DNA of 64,000 nucleotides from Allobosea sp. BK604. Its GTDB lineage: Bacteria; Pseudomonadota; Alphaproteobacteria; Rhizobiales; Beijerinckiaceae. The position numbers were made by a program, and so were the translations under genes. Positions 1,041 to 63,153 of this stretch are shown piece after piece (positions within the stretch are counted from its first letter, which is position 1; each line of letters begins with the position of its first letter). The DNA is taken from contig NZ_SLZF01000012.1 of NCBI RefSeq assembly GCF_004341515.1, positions 186,001 through 250,000 on the forward strand. Direction: 5' to 3'. A model generated the notes under the pieces. It worked only from the letters and a program-made list of their open reading frames with translations, was not told where the DNA came from and did not search any database.

Positions 1041-1093
1041 CTAGAGCATGTGCGCGAAAAGTGGGAACCGCTTTTCGGACATTGTCATGCTCT
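1041..1093. repeat. Short palindromic intergenic repeat (AAAGTGGGAACCG family)
   Basis: A 53-base hairpin with arms AGAGCATG and CATGCTCT and an inner pair around GAAAAGTGGGAACCGCTTTTC. Related hairpins lie at 29512-29556 and 45700-45744. It begins with CTAG, like the 106-base repeats. It sits in the 307-base divergent gap between the FAD oxidoreductase and the thioesterase. The rest of that gap holds one small dyad (GATGGTT/AACCATC, 1183-1200) and no gene. Confidence 0.75.
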
Positions 1094-4775: not shown

Positions 4776-5273
4776 ATGGAAATCCGCACTGAAGATGTCG
4801 GCGATGCTGATGCCATCGCCGACGTGACGACCAGGGCGTTTCGCGCAGCCGCGCATTCAAGCGGTACGGAAGCGAAGATCGTCGAGGCGCTGCGTCATGC
4901 CGGCGCCCTTACGGTTTCCCTGGTCGCGACCGAGAGCGGCTCGATCGCCGGCCATGTCGCCGTGTCCCCGGTTCGCATCGACGGGCGGGAAGAACGCTGG
5001 TTCGGGCTCGGCCCTGTCTCCGTCGCTCCCGAACATCAGTCGAAGGGAATTGGGACCGCCCTGGTCCAGGCGGCGCTTGAGCGACTGCGCGAGCTGAAGA
5101 CGGACGGCTGCATCGTCCTTGGCGACCCGGCCTTCTACCGGCGCTTCGGCTTCAGCAGCGATCCCGGACTTGGATACGGGGATGTTCCGCCGGAATATCT
5201 CCAGCGGCTCCTTCTCGCAGGCACGCCGCCCAAAGGCGAAGTCAGATATCATCCCGCCTTCGACGGGTCCTAG
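4776..5273 (+). CDS. GNAT N-acetyltransferase, YhbS-like
   Basis: A 165-residue GCN5-related acetyltransferase. The acetyl-CoA pyrophosphate loop is QSKGIGTALV (about residues 89-98), preceded by the LGPVSVAP strand. The later GDPAFYRRFGF segment is typical of the YhbS subgroup. The substrate is unknown. It lies 25 bases after msrB and may share its transcript. Its TAG stop codon is the first TAG of the 106-base repeat that begins at 5270, so the repeat supplies the end of the gene. Confidence 0.85.
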   Translation: MEIRTEDVGDADAIADVTTRAFRAAAHSSGTEAKIVEALRHAGALTVSLVATESGSIAGHVAVSPVRIDGREERWFGLGPVSVAPEHQSKGIGTALVQAALERLRELKTDGCIVLGDPAFYRRFGFSSDPGLGYGDVPPEYLQRLLLAGTPPKGEVRYHPAFDGS

Positions 5274-5375
5274 AGCATTTTCGAGCGAAGTGGATACCGG
5301 TTCGCGTGAAGAAAATGCGTCAAAACAAGTAGATAGAGAATTTTCGCGATTCGAAGAAACGCGGAAATGCTCTAG
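5270..5375. repeat. 106-base RIME-like repeat, copy 1
   Basis: Bounded by CTAGAGCATTTTC on the left and GGAAATGCTCTAG on the right, with two internal palindromic halves. It differs by two bases from the copy at 62905 and by four from the copy at 29608. Its left CTAG contains the stop codon of the GNAT gene. Size and two-palindrome form resemble the Rhizobium intergenic mosaic element (RIME); identity to the published element was not tested. Confidence 0.9.
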
Positions 5376-5391
5376 GGAGGGGAAGGCCCTC

Positions 5392-29511: not shown

Positions 29512-29556
29512 GCATCGGCCCGAAAAGTGGACTGCGGTTTTCGGAAAAGCCGATGC
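29512..29556. repeat. Short palindromic repeat (GAAAAGTGG family)
   Basis: A 45-base hairpin with arms GCATCGGCC/GGCCGATGC-like ends and an inner GAAAAGTGG...GTTTTCGG core. It begins two bases after the MBL stop and may end its transcript. The same core is seen at 1041-1093 and 45700-45744. Confidence 0.7.
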
Positions 29557-29607: not shown

Positions 29608-29713
29608 CTAGAGCATTTTCGAGCGAAGTGGACACCGGTTCGCGTGAAGAAAATGCGTCAAAACAAATAGATAGAGAATTTTCGCGGTTCGGAGAAACGC
29701 GGAAATGCTCTAG
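29608..29713. repeat. 106-base RIME-like repeat, copy 2
   Basis: The same 106-base element as at 5270 (four differences), here between the convergent MBL and recN genes. Its right-hand CTAG supplies the TAG stop of recN on the minus strand, mirroring copies 1 and 3, where the left-hand CTAG ends the plus-strand gene. Confidence 0.9.
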
Positions 29714-31395
29714 CCGCGCAGGCCTGCCGCGCTCAGGAGCCGCCCGGCCGCCGCCCTCGCCTCTTCCGTGATCGAGGCGCCGGCAAGCATGCGCGCGATC
29801 TCCTCGCGCCGTGTCTGGTCCATCAGCGGGGTCACGCGGGTCACGGTCTTGGCGGCGGCCGCCGCCCCCGTCGCCGATTTCGCGATCAGGAAATGCTGGC
29901 CGGCCTTGGCCGCGACCTGCGGCGCATGGGTGACCGAGATCACCTGCACCCGTCCGGCCAGCCGCGCCAGCCGCTCGCCGATCGCATCCGCCACCGCGCC
30001 GCCGACGCCGGTGTCGATCTCGTCGAAGACCAGCGTCGGCGCCGAGCCGCGTTCGGCCAGCACGACCTTCAGCGCCAGCATGAAGCGCGAGAGCTCGCCG
30101 CCCGACGCGACCTTCATCATCGGGCCGGGCCGCGTGCCGGGATTGGTCTCGACCCAGAACTCGACCCTGTCGAACCCTTCCGGCCCGCGTGCGGTCTCGT
30201 CGCTGTCGATCTGGGTGATGAAGCGGGCCCGCTCCAGCTTGAGCGGCGGCAGTTCCGCCTTGACCGCCTTGTCGAGCCGCGCCGCCGCCTGCTTGCGTCC
30301 GGCAGAGAGCGCCTGCGCCTGCGTGAGATATTGCCCCTCGGCCTTCGCCAGTTCGGCTTCCAGCCGCGACAGCGAGCCCTCGCTCTCGTCCAGTTCGGCG
30401 AGATCCGCGCTCATTCGCGCCGCGAGATCGGCCAGCGCATCGACCGGCACATCGAATTTGCGCCCGGCGGCGCGCAGGGCGAAGAGCCGTTCCTCGACCC
30501 GCTCCTGCTCGCGCGGATCATATTCCGCCGCGCGCATCGCCGCGGCCAGGGTCTCGCCCGCCTCTTCCAGGGCGACGATCGCGGTGTTGAGCGCCGCCAT
30601 CGACGGGTCGATGAGGTTCGGCGCCTGCGCGCCACGCCGCTCCAGGCGGCGCAGCACGGCCGATAGCGCGGGAACCGGCGAAGCCTGGCCACCCACAGCC
30701 TCATAGGAATCGATCAGGTCGCGCGAGACCTTTTCGGCCTGCATCATCGCCTGGCGCTCTGCGGCCAGCGCTTCCTCCTCGCCAGGCTGGGGCGCGAGCT
30801 TGCCGAGCTCGGCGACGGCATGGCGCAGGAAATCGGCCTCCTTGCGCGCGGCCTCGACCCGGATGCGCTGCGCCTGCAAGGCCTGGCGCGCCCGCTTCAA
30901 CGTCTCGCTCGCGACAGCGGTCGCTTCGGCCCTCGCCTCGAGCCCGCCGAACCCGTCGAGAATGGCGCGGTGCTGTGCGGCATCGGTCAGCGCCCGGTCG
31001 TCATGCTGGCCGTGGATCTCGACGATCGCAGCTCCGATCATGCGCAGGATCTGGACGCTGACCGGCTGGTCGTTGACGAAGGCGCGGGTGCGGCCATCGG
31101 CATATTGCACCCGGCGCAAGATCAGGTCGCCGTCGGTATCGATCTCCTGCGCCTGCGCCAGCTTGCGGGCGGGATGGTCGAGCGGCAGGTCGAACACGGC
31201 GCTGACCTGCCCCTGCGTCTCGCCATGGCGCACGAGATCGCCATCGCCGCGCCCGCCAAGCGCCAGCGCGAAACCGTCGAGTAGAATCGATTTGCCGGCG
31301 CCGGTCTCGCCGGTCAGCACGCTCAGCCCAGCGCCGAAGGCCAGATCGAGCCGGTCAATCAGAACGATGTCACGGATCGAGAGCTGGGCCAGCAT
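29710..31395 (-). CDS. recN: DNA repair protein RecN
   Basis: A 561-residue SMC-like ATPase for double-strand break repair. Walker A is TGETGAGKSILLDG (about residues 30-43). A long coiled-coil middle is rich in Ala, Glu, Arg and Leu. The ABC signature is seen in VASGGELSRFMLAL, Walker B in TLVFDEIDTGVGG, and the His-switch region in VISVTHAPQVAAKA. It is the last gene of the lpxC-bamD-recN set, and its stop codon lies in the 106-base repeat. Confidence 0.95.
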   Translation of the reverse strand: MLAQLSIRDIVLIDRLDLAFGAGLSVLTGETGAGKSILLDGFALALGGRGDGDLVRHGETQGQVSAVFDLPLDHPARKLAQAQEIDTDGDLILRRVQYADGRTRAFVNDQPVSVQILRMIGAAIVEIHGQHDDRALTDAAQHRAILDGFGGLEARAEATAVASETLKRARQALQAQRIRVEAARKEADFLRHAVAELGKLAPQPGEEEALAAERQAMMQAEKVSRDLIDSYEAVGGQASPVPALSAVLRRLERRGAQAPNLIDPSMAALNTAIVALEEAGETLAAAMRAAEYDPREQERVEERLFALRAAGRKFDVPVDALADLAARMSADLAELDESEGSLSRLEAELAKAEGQYLTQAQALSAGRKQAAARLDKAVKAELPPLKLERARFITQIDSDETARGPEGFDRVEFWVETNPGTRPGPMMKVASGGELSRFMLALKVVLAERGSAPTLVFDEIDTGVGGAVADAIGERLARLAGRVQVISVTHAPQVAAKAGQHFLIAKSATGAAAAAKTVTRVTPLMDQTRREEIARMLAGASITEEARAAAGRLLSAAGLRG

Positions 31396-38994: not shown

Positions 38995-39037
38995 TGCCGC
39001 AACGGCATCTTAACCATTTGATCGCTAGGGTCTGTAC

Positions 39038-39964
39038 TCAGGCCGCCAAGCCGAGCCGCTTGATCTCCCAGTGCAGCTCGTAGCCGGACTTGTCCTTGAC
39101 CCGGCGACGGACCTCCTCGCCGAGATTCTCGATATCGGCCGCGGTGGCCCCGCCCGTGTTGATCAGGAAGTTGCAATGCATCTCCGAGACCTGCGCGCCA
39201 CCGATGCGCAGGCCGCGGCAGCCGGCCGCGTCGATCAGCTGCCAGGCCTTGCCGCCATCGGGGTTCTTGAAGGTCGAGCCGCCGGTGCGCTCCTTGATCG
39301 GCTGCGCCGCCTCGCGTGCCGCCGTCACCCGGTCCATCTCGGCGAGAATGGCCTTCTGGTCGCCGGGCCGCCCCTGGAACAGGGCGGAGGTGAAGATGAT
39401 CTCGGCGGTCGAGAGCGCGCTGTTGCGATAGGTGAAACCCATATCGGCATGGGACAGCGTGACGATCTCACCCTTGCGCGTGACACCGCGCGCCTCGACC
39501 AGGACATCGGTCGTCTCGCCGCCATGCGCGCCGGCATTCATCCTGAGCGCCCCACCGATGCAGCCGGGAATGCCGCGATAGAAGGCGAGCCCGTCGAGCG
39601 AGGCATCGGCCGCCGCGCGCGCCACCTTCACATCCGGAACCGAGGTTCCGGCCCGAAGCCGATCGCCGTCCTCCAGCGTGATCTCGCCAAAAGCCTTGCC
39701 GCCGAGCCGGATGACGAGGCCGGGAATGCCGCCATCACGCACGATCAGGTTCGAACCGAGGCCGACCACCGTCACGGGAATATTCGCCGGCAGCTTCGAG
39801 AGCAGATAGGCGAGATCCTGCTCATCGGCCGGGGTGAACAGCACCTGCGCCGGCCCGCCGACGCGGAACCAGGTCAGGCCAGCCATCTCCTGGTTGGCCA
39901 GAAGCCGGCCGCGCAGCTCGGGCGCGGCAGCGCGAAGGTCGGGGGTGATGTCGGGGAAGGTCAT
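39038..39964 (-). CDS. murB: UDP-N-acetylenolpyruvoylglucosamine reductase
   Basis: A 308-residue flavoenzyme that reduces UDP-GlcNAc-enolpyruvate to UDP-MurNAc. The FAD-binding part has [20 protein letters not shown] and [21 protein letters not shown]. The C-terminal catalytic region has [20 protein letters not shown] (catalytic Ser) and ends [13 protein letters not shown] with the downstream acid. It is separated from murC by the DUF559 insertion. Confidence 0.96.
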
Positions 39965-39979
39965 CGATGAGGCCGCGCG

Positions 39980-40402
39980 CTACTCCTTCTCCCCTCGGGG
40001 GAGAAGGTGGCTCCGCGAAGCGGAGACGGATGAGGGAAGTCCGGCGAGACCTAAGACGTCGGCAATCTCGCGCAGAACGAAGTCGAGATTTCCTAGAACC
40101 CGATCATTGGCAAAGCGCAAGACCCTGTAGCCCTCGCGGCGCAGGAAGGCGTCACGTTGGGCATCCCTGGCCTTTGCCTCCTGCGTGAGATGCGGCTCGC
40201 CATCCAGCTCGACGATGATCCGATGCTCAAAGCAGCAAAAATCGGCGATAAACGGGCCGATTGCCATCTGGCGCTTGAATTTCAAGCCATTGAAGCGGCG
40301 CCCCCGAACCGCCTGCCAGAAGGCAGCTTCCGCCCTGGTGGGCTGGCGGCGCTGATCGCGAGCGAAGGCGAGCGCTTCAGGCGAATTCTTTCGCTCCAGC
40401 AC
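39980..40402 (-). CDS. DUF559 (VSR/restriction-endonuclease-like) protein inserted in the mur operon
   Basis: A 140-residue DUF559 protein with a PD-(D/E)XK-like nuclease fold related to very-short-patch repair enzymes. The core is FKRQMAIGPFIADFCCFEH (42-60) followed by RIIVELDGEPHL (61-72) and GYRVLRFANDRVL. It starts with GTG at 40402. The AGGGAAGG just upstream is part of the right inverted repeat, so the repeat gives the ribosome binding site. Residues 122-139 are encoded by the left inverted repeat, ending LLPRGEKE. Biochemical function is not established for this family. It sits between murB and murC on the same strand. Confidence 0.88.
   Translation of the reverse strand: MLERKNSPEALAFARDQRRQPTRAEAAFWQAVRGRRFNGLKFKRQMAIGPFIADFCCFEHRIIVELDGEPHLTQEAKARDAQRDAFLRREGYRVLRFANDRVLGNLDFVLREIADVLGLAGLPSSVSASRSHLLPRGEKE
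39984..40039. repeat. Left 56-base inverted repeat of the DUF559 unit
   Basis: Begins TCCTTCTCCCCTCGGGGGAG and ends ACGGATGAGGGAAG. Inside are two small hairpins, CCTTCTCCCC/GGGGAGAAGG and CTCCGC/GCGGAG. It is the near-exact reverse complement of 40406-40461, with changes mainly in the second hairpin, where pairing is kept. Confidence 0.9.
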
Positions 40403-40405
40403 AGC

Positions 40406-40461
40406 CTTCCCTCATCCGTCAGCGCTTCGCGCTGCCACCTTCTCCCCCGGGGGGAGAAGGA
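40406..40461. repeat. Right 56-base inverted repeat of the DUF559 unit
   Basis: Begins CTTCCCTCATCCGTCAGC and ends in the CCTTCTCCCC/GGGGAGAAGG hairpin. It lies between the DUF559 start (40402) and the murC stop (40470). Read on the minus strand its end, GAGGGAAG, is the likely ribosome binding site of the DUF559 gene. Confidence 0.9.
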
Positions 40462-40469
40462 AGCAAGCA

Positions 40470-41873
40470 TCAATCCAGCGCCGCCAGCTCTCCCGGCAGC
40501 GCATAGGCCCATTGCGTGATGTTGCCCGCTCCGAGGCAGACGACATAGTCGCCCGGCCCGGCGAGCTCCTTCACCATTCCGGCGAGCTTGTCCGGTCCCT
40601 CCAGCGCCAGAGCATGGCGGTGGCCCCGCGCCTTGATGCCGGCGACGAGGCTGTCGCGGTCGGCGCCCGGAATCGGCGCCTCGCCGGCCGCATAGGTCTC
40701 GGCCACGATCACCGTGTCGGCATCGTTGAAACAGGCGGCGAAATCGTCGAACAGGCTGGAGAGGCGGGTATAGCGATGCGGCTGCACGATCGCGATGACC
40801 TTGCCCTTGGTCGAGGCCCGCGCCGCCTTGAGCACGGCGGCGATCTCGACCGGGTGATGGCCGTAATCGTCGAAGATCAGCGCGCCGTTCCATTCTCCGG
40901 TCTTGGTGAAGCGGCGCTTCACGCCGCCGAAGCCGGCGAGCGCCTCGCGGATCTGCGGCACCGGCACGCCGAGATCATAGGCCACCGCGATCGCCGCCGT
41001 GGCATTGAGCGCATTGTGATGGCCCGGCATCGGCATGATCAGGTCGCGGATGACCTCGTCGCGGTTGCGCTTGCGGTCGCGGATCAGCAGCGTGAACTTG
41101 GCCTGGCCGCCGGCGAGGTCGATATCGATCAGCCGGAAATCGGCCTGCGGGTTCTCGCCATAGGTGATGACGCGGCGGTCCTCGATCTGGCCGACCAGCC
41201 CCTGCACGGTCGGATGGTCGATGCACATCACGGCGAAACCATAGAAGGGCAGGTTCTCGACGAAGGAGCGGAAGGCCTCCTTGATCGCGTCGAAGGTCTT
41301 GAAGTGGTCGAGATGCTCGGGGTCGATATTGGTGACGATCGCGACATCGGCCGGCAGCTTCAGGAAAGTGCCGTCGGACTCGTCGGCCTCGACCACCATC
41401 CAGTCGCTCTCGCCCATGCGGGCATTGGTGCCGTAGGCGTTGATGATGCCGCCATTGATCACGGTCGGATCGAGGCCGCCCTTCTCCAGCAAGGTCGCGA
41501 CCAGCGAGGTCGTCGTCGTCTTGCCATGGGTGCCGGCAATGGCAACGCAGGTCTTCAACCGCATCAGCTCGGCCAGCATCTCGGCCCGGCGCACCACCGG
41601 CAGGCGGCTTTCGCGGGCGGCGGCGAGCTCGGGATTGTCGCGCTTGATCGCGGTCGAGACCACGACGACCTCGGCCTCGCCAAGATTCTCGGCGGAATGG
41701 CCGATGAAGGTCTTGATGCCCTTCTCGGCCAGGCGCCGGACATTGGCGTTGTCGGAGGCGTCCGAGCCCTGCACCTTGTAGCCGAGATTGTGCAGCACCT
41801 CGGCGATGCCGGACATGCCGATGCCGCCGATGCCCACGAAGTGGATCGAGCCGAGTTCCGCCGGCAGCTTCAT
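40470..41873 (-). CDS. murC: UDP-N-acetylmuramate-L-alanine ligase
   Basis: A 467-residue Mur ligase adding L-Ala to UDP-MurNAc. The N-terminal [18 protein letters not shown] binds the UDP part, the P-loop is [15 protein letters not shown] (about residues 110-124), and the central motif is [12 protein letters not shown]. The last domain has [16 protein letters not shown], typical for MurC. It follows murG after 52 bases. Confidence 0.96.
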
Positions 41874-45699: not shown

Positions 45700-45744
45700 G
45701 CATGATGCCGAAAAGTGGGAACCGGTTTTCGGGCGACATCATGC
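45700..45744. repeat. Short palindromic repeat between mraY and murD
   Basis: Arms GCATGATG/CATCATGC enclose GAAAAGTGGGAACCGGTTTTC. It belongs to the same family as 1041-1093 and 29512-29556. It takes up the space where the murD ribosome binding site would be expected. Confidence 0.8.
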
Positions 45745-61915: not shown

Positions 61916-62908
61916 ATGAGGCGAGACTTGAACCCTACGCCGCTGCCCGACGCCGAAGCCCGCCGCCTCTACGATCAGGCCGCATCGCTGGCGGGGATCG
62001 GAGCCTGGGAATGTCGGCTTTCGAACCAGCAGCTCACCTGGACGGACGGCGTCTACGATATTTTCGGCCTGACGCGCGGCTCGGCCCTGCACCGGCCCTC
62101 GATCGTCGATCTCTATCATGACGCCTCGCGCGCAGAGATGGAGCGCCTGCGCGCCAGCCTGATCCGCACCGGCCAGGGCTTCACCCTCGACGCGCGGGTT
62201 CTGACCGTCGATGGAGCCGAGCGCTGGATGCGCCTCAGCGCCAATGTCTCGCATAGCCATGGCCGGCCGGTCTGCATCTACGGCGCCAAGCAGGACGTCA
62301 CGCGGGAAAAGCAGATGTGGCTGGGCCTGCGACGCCTTGCCTATAGCGACCCGCTCACCGGCCTCGCCAATCGCCGCGCCTTCGAGGCCGACCTGTCCGA
62401 GTTGCGCCGGTGCCCCGCGGACAGCCGTGCCCTCGGCCTGCTCGCCCTCATCGATCTCGACCTGTTCAAACCGGTCAACGACCGCTACGGCCATGCCGCC
62501 GGCGATGCCTGCCTGCGCCAGATCGCGCGGCGATTGGAGGCGGTGCTGAGCGACGCGAGGATGATCGCGCGGATCGGCGGCGACGAATTCGCGCTGCTGC
62601 TATACTCGGCGCCCGGCCGGCCGCACGTGCTGCATCGGCTCCGCCAGGCGCTCGCAGCCCTGTCGCGGCCGATCCTGTGGAACCATCAGCAGATCGAGAT
62701 CGGCGCCTCGATCGGAGCGACCATGCTGTCGCCCGGCCGCAGCATCGATCCCGACCAATGCTTCGCCGAGGCCGATTCCGCGCTTTACGTCGCCAAGGCG
62801 GCCGGGCGGAACCGGCTGCATGTCTTCGGCGACCCACTGCAGGCCTCCCCGGCCGCGGAGGCGATGAGCAATGCCATCGCCGCCGGCAATGCGCTGCGGC
62901 TGATCTAG
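61916..62908 (+). CDS. PAS-GGDEF diguanylate cyclase
   Basis: A 330-residue soluble protein. A PAS fold spans residues about 15-135, with GIGAWECRLSNQQLTWTDGV and the PAC segment GAKQDVTREKQMWLGL. The GGDEF domain follows with DPLTGLANRRAFEADLSEL, LIDLDLFKPVNDRYGHAAGD and the intact active site RIGGDEFALLL. It should make c-di-GMP in response to a PAS-sensed signal. The start at 61916 is the first ATG giving a normal PAS N-terminus. Its TAG stop is part of the 106-base repeat, and a degenerate copy of that repeat lies upstream. Confidence 0.88.
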   Translation: MRRDLNPTPLPDAEARRLYDQAASLAGIGAWECRLSNQQLTWTDGVYDIFGLTRGSALHRPSIVDLYHDASRAEMERLRASLIRTGQGFTLDARVLTVDGAERWMRLSANVSHSHGRPVCIYGAKQDVTREKQMWLGLRRLAYSDPLTGLANRRAFEADLSELRRCPADSRALGLLALIDLDLFKPVNDRYGHAAGDACLRQIARRLEAVLSDARMIARIGGDEFALLLYSAPGRPHVLHRLRQALAALSRPILWNHQQIEIGASIGATMLSPGRSIDPDQCFAEADSALYVAKAAGRNRLHVFGDPLQASPAAEAMSNAIAAGNALRLI

Positions 62909-63010
62909 AGCATCTTCGAGCGAAGTGGATACCGGTTCGCGTGAAGAAAATGCGTCAAAACAAGTAGATAGAGAATTTTCGCGATTCGAAGAAGCGCGGA
63001 AATGCTCTAG
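62905..63010. repeat. 106-base RIME-like repeat, copy 3
   Basis: Two differences from the copy at 5270. The left CTAG contains the stop codon of the diguanylate cyclase gene. It is in the same orientation as copies 1 and 2. Confidence 0.9.
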
Positions 63011-63153
63011 GCTCCGCGCGGCCCGGGCCGTCGACGTCGCACGCAGGTGACGAGCCCCAGCCAAGGACAGCGCTTTCGGGCTCACCCTATGCGTAAGCCG
63101 CCGCAAGCATCTCTGCCGCTATCTTGACGCGCTCGCCCCCCTCTTCACCGCCA

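What the first reader, a model, noticed from the sequence alone, without database searches (positions are those of the whole stretch)
39980..40461. DUF559 nuclease-like gene carried between 56-base inverted repeats inside the mur operon
The murB-murC junction is interrupted by a DUF559 gene flanked by near-identical 56-base inverted repeats, each made of two small hairpins. One repeat encodes residues 122-139 of the protein and the other supplies AGGGAAGG as ribosome binding site, so gene and repeats look like one unit. Differences between the two repeats fall mainly in the second hairpin and keep it paired. By analogy with REP-associated tyrosine transposases, DUF559 could mobilise or maintain these REP-like elements; such a role is, to my knowledge, not described. 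The unit lies in the same direction as the operon, so it is transcribed without blocking murB.
Basis: partly seen in the sequence, partly recalled or inferred. Interest (0 to 1): 0.8.

Follow-up and report, generated by a model that had tools for sequence, protein, structure and literature searches.

The report
Nuclease paired with triplex-forming DNA repeats
A small gene for a putative DNA-cutting enzyme (DUF559) sits between two mirror-image copies of a short folding DNA repeat, and across many bacteria genes of this family keep the same company, which points to an enzyme dedicated to a repeat class that had no known partner.

Summary
In detail: a 140-aa DUF559 gene lies between 56-nt inverted repeats (91% complementary) at the murC-murB junction of a probable Bosea genome. 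The association is general. Inverted repeats flank 158 of 239 DUF559 loci (238 distinct), against 5 of 345 mock slots. Of the 238, 206 have, within 300 nt, a hairpin followed by a mirror-image third strand; 47 of 3,352 other stretches do. This is the published intrastrand-triplex (TM/PIT) motif; around its E. coli copies Holder et al. 2015 found no mobility gene. Genomes with DUF559 carry about 20 times more such palindromes (9.3 versus 0.48 per Mb; 80 versus 191 genomes), with or without a RAYT-type transposase. Related DUF559 proteins have related repeats, even among paralogues in one genome (rho 0.77). Best reading: a RAYT/REPIN-like system built on a Vsr/homing-endonuclease-type nuclease fold. 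Association and cognate pairing are shown; that the nuclease drives repeat copying is inferred. The window's unit looks old, vertically inherited, under purifying selection and repeatedly lost. My literature searches found no report of this link.

The parts
39980..40402 (-). DUF559 (PF04480, Vsr-like fold) gene, 140 aa, GTG start
   Evidence: fold; dN/dS 0.16
39984..40039 (+). repeat arm on the gene's 3' side; encodes residues 122-140, which the predicted structure leaves disordered
39985..40007 (.). hairpin 1 (CCTTCTCCC / GGGAGAAGG) of that arm
40011..40025 (.). hairpin 2 of that arm (variable stem, compensatory changes)
40028..40036 (+). third strand GGATGAGGG, mirror of the purine arm GGGAGAAGG with A read as A or T; lies toward the gene
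   Evidence: read; arm found by the motif finder; motif class tested
40406..40461 (-). inverted repeat arm on the gene's 5' side
40438..40460 (.). hairpin 1 of the 5' arm
40420..40434 (.). hairpin 2 of the 5' arm
40409..40417 (-). third strand GGATGAGGG of the 5' arm
   Evidence: read; arm found by the motif finder
40405..40412 (-). AGGGAAGG, possible ribosome binding site supplied by the arm (plus one base outside it)
   Evidence: read; not tested
40470..41873 (-). murC (host gene upstream of the unit; name not from a family search)
   Evidence: used to find the junction
39038..39964 (-). murB (host gene downstream of the unit; name not from a family search)

Best explanation
The unit is one copy of a widespread two-part system: a small Vsr-like nuclease (DUF559) and its cognate triplex-type palindromic repeat (hairpin, optional second hairpin, mirror-image third strand). 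The repeats are scattered through the genome, often as inverted doublets with third strands inward, and the nuclease gene sits where such a doublet has its spacer. SHOWN: the two arms, the cognate pairing of enzyme and repeat type, the correlation of repeat number with DUF559 presence, and constraint on the enzyme. INFERRED: the nuclease recognises the element when it is extruded or single-stranded (replication, repair) and nicks or cuts there, and the repair or copying that follows spreads doublets, with or without the gene, much as RAYT transposases are thought to spread REPINs. In the window's lineage the unit has been inherited at murC-murB and decays by deletion to a single hairpin or to nothing.
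Against: No cleavage or movement was observed. No target-site duplication or clean recent empty site could be read; congener intergenic DNA is too diverged. The window's unit looks old and vertical. 32 of 238 DUF559 loci have no such element within 300 nt. Direct repeats also exceed the mock slots (93 of 239 vs 12 of 345), partly because hairpin 1 is its own reverse complement, so orientation is a bias, not a law; gene-less doublets elsewhere are mixed (10 inward, 4 outward, 9 direct). Some genomes with 30 or more palindromes lack DUF559 (9 of 56 in the family). Four of 23 genera go the other way. E. coli ycjD has a TM element only on its 3' side, about 170 nt away, plus a degenerate copy at its end, and my strict finder does not detect it. 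A DUF559 protein of Caulobacter has been interpreted as a mismatch-repair enzyme (PMC12907096). Loci were high-scoring matches, not random ones.
Confidence: 0.52

Rival explanations
1. Guardian: DUF559 is a host nuclease that processes extruded hairpins or triplexes and makes many repeats tolerable; the repeats spread by another route.
Against: Does not explain why the gene itself is bracketed by its cognate element at many unrelated loci, or why paralogues in one genome each carry their own type.
Confidence: 0.17
2. Homing: DUF559 is a selfish endonuclease that cuts at a repeat (for example a solo hairpin) and is copied in by gene conversion, so only the gene moves, into existing repeats.
Against: At murC-murB the DUF559 tree groups the same main clades as the murCB tree, which fits inheritance plus loss. 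Both arms are alike within a unit (0.517 vs 0.212 between loci), which fits movement of the whole unit.
Confidence: 0.19
3. Mismatch repair: DUF559 is a Vsr-like repair enzyme, and the repeats nearby are incidental insulators or terminators.
Against: Repair does not predict cognate flanking repeats or genome-wide repeat abundance.
Confidence: 0.08
4. Bystander: palindromes gather in intergenic DNA and DUF559 merely lies in such places; another transposase, such as RAYT, drives them.
For: Elements are somewhat commoner in intergenic segments (8 of 227) than in arbitrary stretches (47 of 3,352).
Against: 206 of 238 DUF559 loci against that background. Y1_Tnp presence has no effect in either stratum. 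0 of 10 Y1_Tnp genes have the element. The own genome has no Y1_Tnp match.
Confidence: 0.04

Closest known systems
RAYT-REP/REPIN system (PMC2817692, passages; Bertels and Rainey 2011 PMC3116915, abstract)
   Same: Enzyme gene flanked by two inverted palindromic repeats; repeats abundant genome-wide, doublets inverted; repeat groups go with specific enzymes
   Different: DUF559 has a Vsr-like fold, not Y1/HUH; the repeat has a mirror third strand; repeat number does not track Y1_Tnp here. The GT(A/G)G head of REPs was not looked for
Intrastrand triplex motif TM/TMECO, earlier PIT elements (Holder 2015 PMC4666352)
   Same: CCCTCNCCC hairpin plus GGGNGAGGG third strand; inverted pairs in E. coli; more than 260 genomes
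   Different: The paper found no mobility gene around the E. coli copies; here a cognate nuclease gene is found, and variants with a second hairpin in the second loop are included
DUF559 / YcjD / Caulobacter VsrA (PF04480)
   Same: The enzyme of this unit is a member
   Different: No repeat association was found in the papers that I searched
Vsr-type homing endonuclease I-Bth0305I (3r3p)
   Different: Its biology (recalled: phage intron homing) is not tied to palindromic repeats
Bacterial MITEs and their parent insertion sequences
   Same: Gene-less inverted-repeat doublets next to gene-bearing copies with like ends
   Different: No target-site duplication seen; no known transposase fold

Membership tests
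DUF559 (PF04480) | Pfam profile match above gathering score | tested here: met
   122.1 bits vs cut-off 20.6
Vsr-like / PD-(D/E)XK nuclease fold | structural match to solved members | tested here: met
Vsr (mismatch endonuclease) | sequence-profile relation to E. coli Vsr | tested here: inconclusive
   hhalign 8.8% probability, E 0.0038, against a single sequence
Vsr (mismatch endonuclease) | cuts at T:G mismatches | not testable with these tools
   needs enzyme assays
RAYT-REPIN | enzyme is a Y1/HUH transposase (PF01797) | tested here: not met
   only PF04480 and weak PF18741 at E up to 0.001; no PF01797 match in the own genome
RAYT-REPIN | enzyme gene flanked by inverted repeats abundant in the genome | tested here: met
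RAYT-REPIN | repeat type goes with enzyme type | tested here: met
TM/PIT intrastrand triplex element | pyrimidine-purine hairpin followed by a mirror purine third strand | tested here: met
   class near DUF559: own mirror 477 of 1,000 overlapping hairpin frames vs 285 unreversed and 169 for another's arm; both window arms found by the finder (L009, L010), with a 20-nt second loop instead of the published N3
TM/PIT intrastrand triplex element | forms a triplex in solution | not testable with these tools
   in vitro data for E. coli TMECO in PMC4666352 (abstract and passages)
Transposable element | movement or target-site duplication | tested here: inconclusive
   presence/absence among congeners seen, no duplication readable
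Homing endonuclease | cuts the vacant allele and is copied in | not testable with these tools
   fold match only
Anti-phage defence protein | match to a PADLOC model | tested here: not met
   0 families for 4 DUF559 proteins

The most novel reading that the evidence does not exclude
DUF559 is a new class of transposition enzyme: a single small Vsr-like nuclease that recognises a three-stranded (hairpin plus mirror strand) DNA fold and has spread triplex-type repeats, including the orphan PIT/TM elements of E. coli, through a large part of the bacterial domain.
Probability: 0.4. Interest if true: 0.95.

Novelty: new variant of a known kind. Interest (0 to 1): 0.86.

Why it matters
[quoted passage not shown] This work names a candidate and gives it a cognate, testable substrate in each genome. 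It would also give a biological role to a large 'domain of unknown function' annotated only as an endonuclease, and suggest that the REP-plus-nuclease arrangement arose at least twice, on unrelated enzyme folds.

Tried and rejected
Rejected: RAYT as driver; anti-phage defence label (0 families); a known Rfam RNA at the locus (none at gathering threshold in 39000-41500); a recent insertion of the window's unit (favour an old vertical copy). Led nowhere: reading target-site duplications from congeners and from 20 G027 doublets. Two of the 10 Y1_Tnp loci have inverted repeats of another kind. No fold of a RAYT or other Y1 transposase is among the 50 structure rows shown; that list cannot exclude one. 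My first pass used only exact 10-mer seeds and missed gapped repeats; one search replaced it. misread junctions of loci on the reverse strand; one search replaced it. The protein table read 19 loci on the wrong strand; corrected (the inverted-repeat counts do not depend on strand).

Sampling limits: one search used 30 loci given by the search, 60 of the further listed matches and the own one; one search used 68 phylum loci and the best 80 of 569 relatives, found with an alignment of 8 sequences. These are high-scoring matches, not a random draw. L223 repeats L057 (same contig), so 239 loci are 238 distinct; it was dropped, not. L250/L252 (two Chitinimonas records) are 99% and L036/L055 95% alike and were kept. 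Own-genome doublets were counted 7 times but are 4 distinct ones. Genomes with weak DUF559 matches (E above 1e-10: 8 in the family, 28 in the phylum) were kept apart and counted as DUF559-negative. Cross-genus p values treat pairs as independent and are too small; the shuffles are the fair test.

Recalled, from no call: the names murB and murC for the host genes (also in the finding), ilvB-ilvH for the G027 site, what I-Bth0305I does, and that hairpin-forming ends can be deleted between direct repeats.

Full report
WHAT IS THERE. In the window two host frames, 40470-41873 and 39038-39964 (minus strand; murC and murB by recognition), are separated by a 140-codon gene, 39980-40402 (-), which matches PF04480 DUF559 at E 1.2e-35. 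It lies between arms 39984-40039 and 40406-40461, 56 nt, 91% complementary, first in the list of inverted repeats of the 64 kb. Each arm reads, from outside to the gene: hairpin 1 (CCTTCTCCC / GGGAGAAGG), hairpin 2 with a variable stem, then GGATGAGGG. The left arm encodes the protein's end, which the predicted structure leaves disordered (mean pLDDT 53-56 for residues 121-140). The right arm supplies a purine-rich stretch before the GTG start. The genome (7.6 Mb) has one DUF559 match and 62 and 66 matches on the two strands to the hairpin-1 palindrome, control 0 and 1. The genus is probably Bosea: a contig of the same-genus genome G011 has the length and place of one of Bosea sp. CS1GBMeth4, and the two DUF559 genes on it are identical.

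IT IS A GENERAL RULE. I took 91 DUF559 loci from the same family (own one included), 68 from the phylum and 80 named ones from GTDB genomes. Inverted repeats with score 22 or more across the gene occur in 69 of 91, 39 of 68 and 50 of 80. Mock gene slots in the same loci give 4 of 117, 1 of 79 and 0 of 149. Direct repeats of that score occur in 39, 26 and 28 loci, mock 4, 3 and 5 (same calls). The repeats differ from locus to locus but share one architecture. The named loci with such repeats include alpha-, beta- and gammaproteobacteria and metagenome-assembled genomes labelled Desulfobacteraceae, Geobacteraceae, Planctomycetota and Dehalococcoidia (labels as deposited).

THE ARCHITECTURE IS THE INTRASTRAND-TRIPLEX MOTIF. 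A strict finder (8-nt pyrimidine arm, exact purine partner, then an exact mirror image of the purine arm with A matched by A or T, gap up to 60) hits within 300 nt upstream/downstream in 70/58 of 91, 48/43 of 68 and 57/43 of 80, on both sides in 45, 33 and 34, against 11 of 769, 9 of 563 and 27 of 2,020 other 300-nt stretches. On at least one side: 206 of 238 distinct loci. Intergenic segments away from DUF559: 8 of 227. The mirror relation is specific: of 1,000 hairpin frames near DUF559, 477 are followed by the mirror of their own purine arm, 285 by the same letters unreversed, 169 on average by the mirror of another hairpin's arm; the 5' side gives 88 (frames overlap, so they are not independent). 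Gaps peak at 2-3 nt, with a broad second group, mostly 13-30 nt, where a second hairpin can lie. This is the motif CCCTCNCCCN3-6GGGNGAGGGN3GGGNGAGGG of Holder et al. 2015 (PMC4666352; abstract, passages and sections 15 and 18 read). They report 23 copies in E. coli MG1655, five inverted pairs, and no mobility gene around those copies. E. coli's own DUF559 gene, ycjD, has a match to the published hairpin about 170 nt beyond its 3' end, with the third strand, and a degenerate copy over its end. My strict finder does not find it, because of a mismatch, and its 5' side shows a different inverted repeat.

ORIENTATION. The third strand points to the gene in 255 of 319 nearest elements, and 86 of 116 flanking pairs are inverted with third strands inward. 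Gene-less doublets of the own genome have the same orientation, 4 of 4 distinct ones, with 43-62 nt between. So the gene sits where a doublet has its spacer. In the other fetched loci, doublets away from DUF559 are mixed: 10 inward, 4 outward, 9 direct.

REPEAT NUMBER FOLLOWS DUF559, NOT RAYT. Family sample of 149 genomes: median 8.9 palindromes/Mb in 85 with DUF559, 1.4 in 56 without, 0.9 in 8 with weak matches; p 1e-10; the reversed-pattern control does not differ. DUF559-bearing members are higher in 19 of 23 genera with both kinds; within-genus permutation p 4e-4. Phylum sample of 299: 9.3 in 80 with, 0.48 in 191 without, 0.31 in 28 with weak matches; p 8e-24; within-family permutation p 2e-4. 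The reversed control is slightly lower with DUF559 (0.32 vs 0.48, p 0.04), that is, in the opposite direction. Y1_Tnp (RAYT-type) presence has no effect, p 0.80 and 0.95 in the two strata, while DUF559 has a strong one in both. Of 10 Y1_Tnp loci none had the element. Exceptions: 9 of 56 family genomes without DUF559 hold 30 or more palindromes; 5 of 191 phylum genomes without it, and 1 of 28 with a weak match, hold 50 or more. These are correlations.

COGNATE PAIRING. Left and right arms of a locus resemble each other (5-mer similarity 0.517) more than arms of different loci (0.212; 93 loci). Pairs of DUF559 genes in one genome: those under 45% identical have unlike elements (0.119, 21 pairs), those at 70% or more like ones (0.804, 6 pairs); rho 0.77 over 44 pairs. 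Across genera the nearest DUF559 neighbour's element is more alike than in any of 200 shuffles (0.348; mean 0.199, maximum 0.221; 195 loci). In G027 one element type has 30 + 23 matches, 28 of them exact, and none in nine other genomes, three of them congeners. Of six G027 DUF559 genes examined (of eight), three carry this type on both arms (one arm of L080 lacks one C), two carry a second type and one a third.

THE WINDOW'S UNIT LOOKS OLD. Among 30 murC-murB junctions fetched out of 41 genomes of the genus (own one included), 14 have the unit, 7 a single remnant hairpin and 9 neither, read by eye. On a murC-murB tree these states need 8 changes, and the DUF559 tree shows the same main groups, though several of its branches are weak. 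Inheritance with repeated loss fits best; the root was not inferred, so gain and loss are not formally separated. Two copies (L119, L122) align only in part. DUF559 dN/dS is 0.16 (66 pairs of 12 full-length copies), murB 0.165 (22 pairs). Solo hairpins also stand at one other unit site in G066 and, in part, at one own-genome doublet site in G180. They could be deletion scars, since hairpin 1 of the two arms is also a direct repeat, or pre-insertion targets.

IS IT KNOWN. Searches: DUF559 (12 papers), REP-associated + RAYT + Vsr + endonuclease (none), palindromic/VSP terms, REP + Rhizobiales + transposase + MITE, ycjD, COG2852, intrastrand triplex, REP-associated/Vsr-like, extragenic palindrom + Vsr + endonuclease (none), PIT element terms. 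From these listings, and from the abstracts, passages or sections seen of six papers, I found no link between DUF559 and repeats. Only an open-licence library was searched. The RAYT paper (PMC2817692, passages) and the REPIN paper (PMC3116915, abstract) describe the parallel system. PMC3733652 (passages) notes that CGTC repeats have no transposase partner; those are a different repeat class.

Noticed in passing
window 5270-5376, 29608-29714, 62905-63011: Three 107-nt direct repeats, 95-98% identical; another dispersed repeat family of this genome.
   Followed up: no
window 1046-1090, 29512-29556, 45700-45744: 45-nt repeat of the GCAT..GAAAAGTGG..TTTTCGG type, 69-78% identical.
   Followed up: no
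L125, L132, L133, L138, L139 murC-murB junctions; L352, L356: Junctions without the unit carry a different palindromic repeat (GCCGTCATGCTCGGG...CCCGAG type), as if the site is reused by several repeat families.
   Followed up: no
L365, L367, L371, L376 (G027): Some triplex doublets seem to lie inside a further, longer inverted repeat (GCGTCAGCCAAATTGAA...; seen by eye), a nested composite.
   Followed up: no
L363-L382 (G027): Doublets look mostly asymmetric: a TTA-loop arm faces an arm with a different loop and third strand (by eye), recalling the type A plus type B pairs of E. coli TMECO.
   Followed up: partly
L264 (Legionella anisa): DUF559 gene flanked by a 148-column, 95% inverted repeat that is not of the triplex type.
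   Followed up: no
G429, G079: 609 and 515 palindromes per genome, the highest counts seen in the two samples; good places to look for recent activity.
   Followed up: no
G319, G469, G338: Genomes with 120-180 palindromes but no, or only a weak, DUF559 match; two are incomplete (87% and 69%), G469 is not, so another partner enzyme is possible.
   Followed up: no
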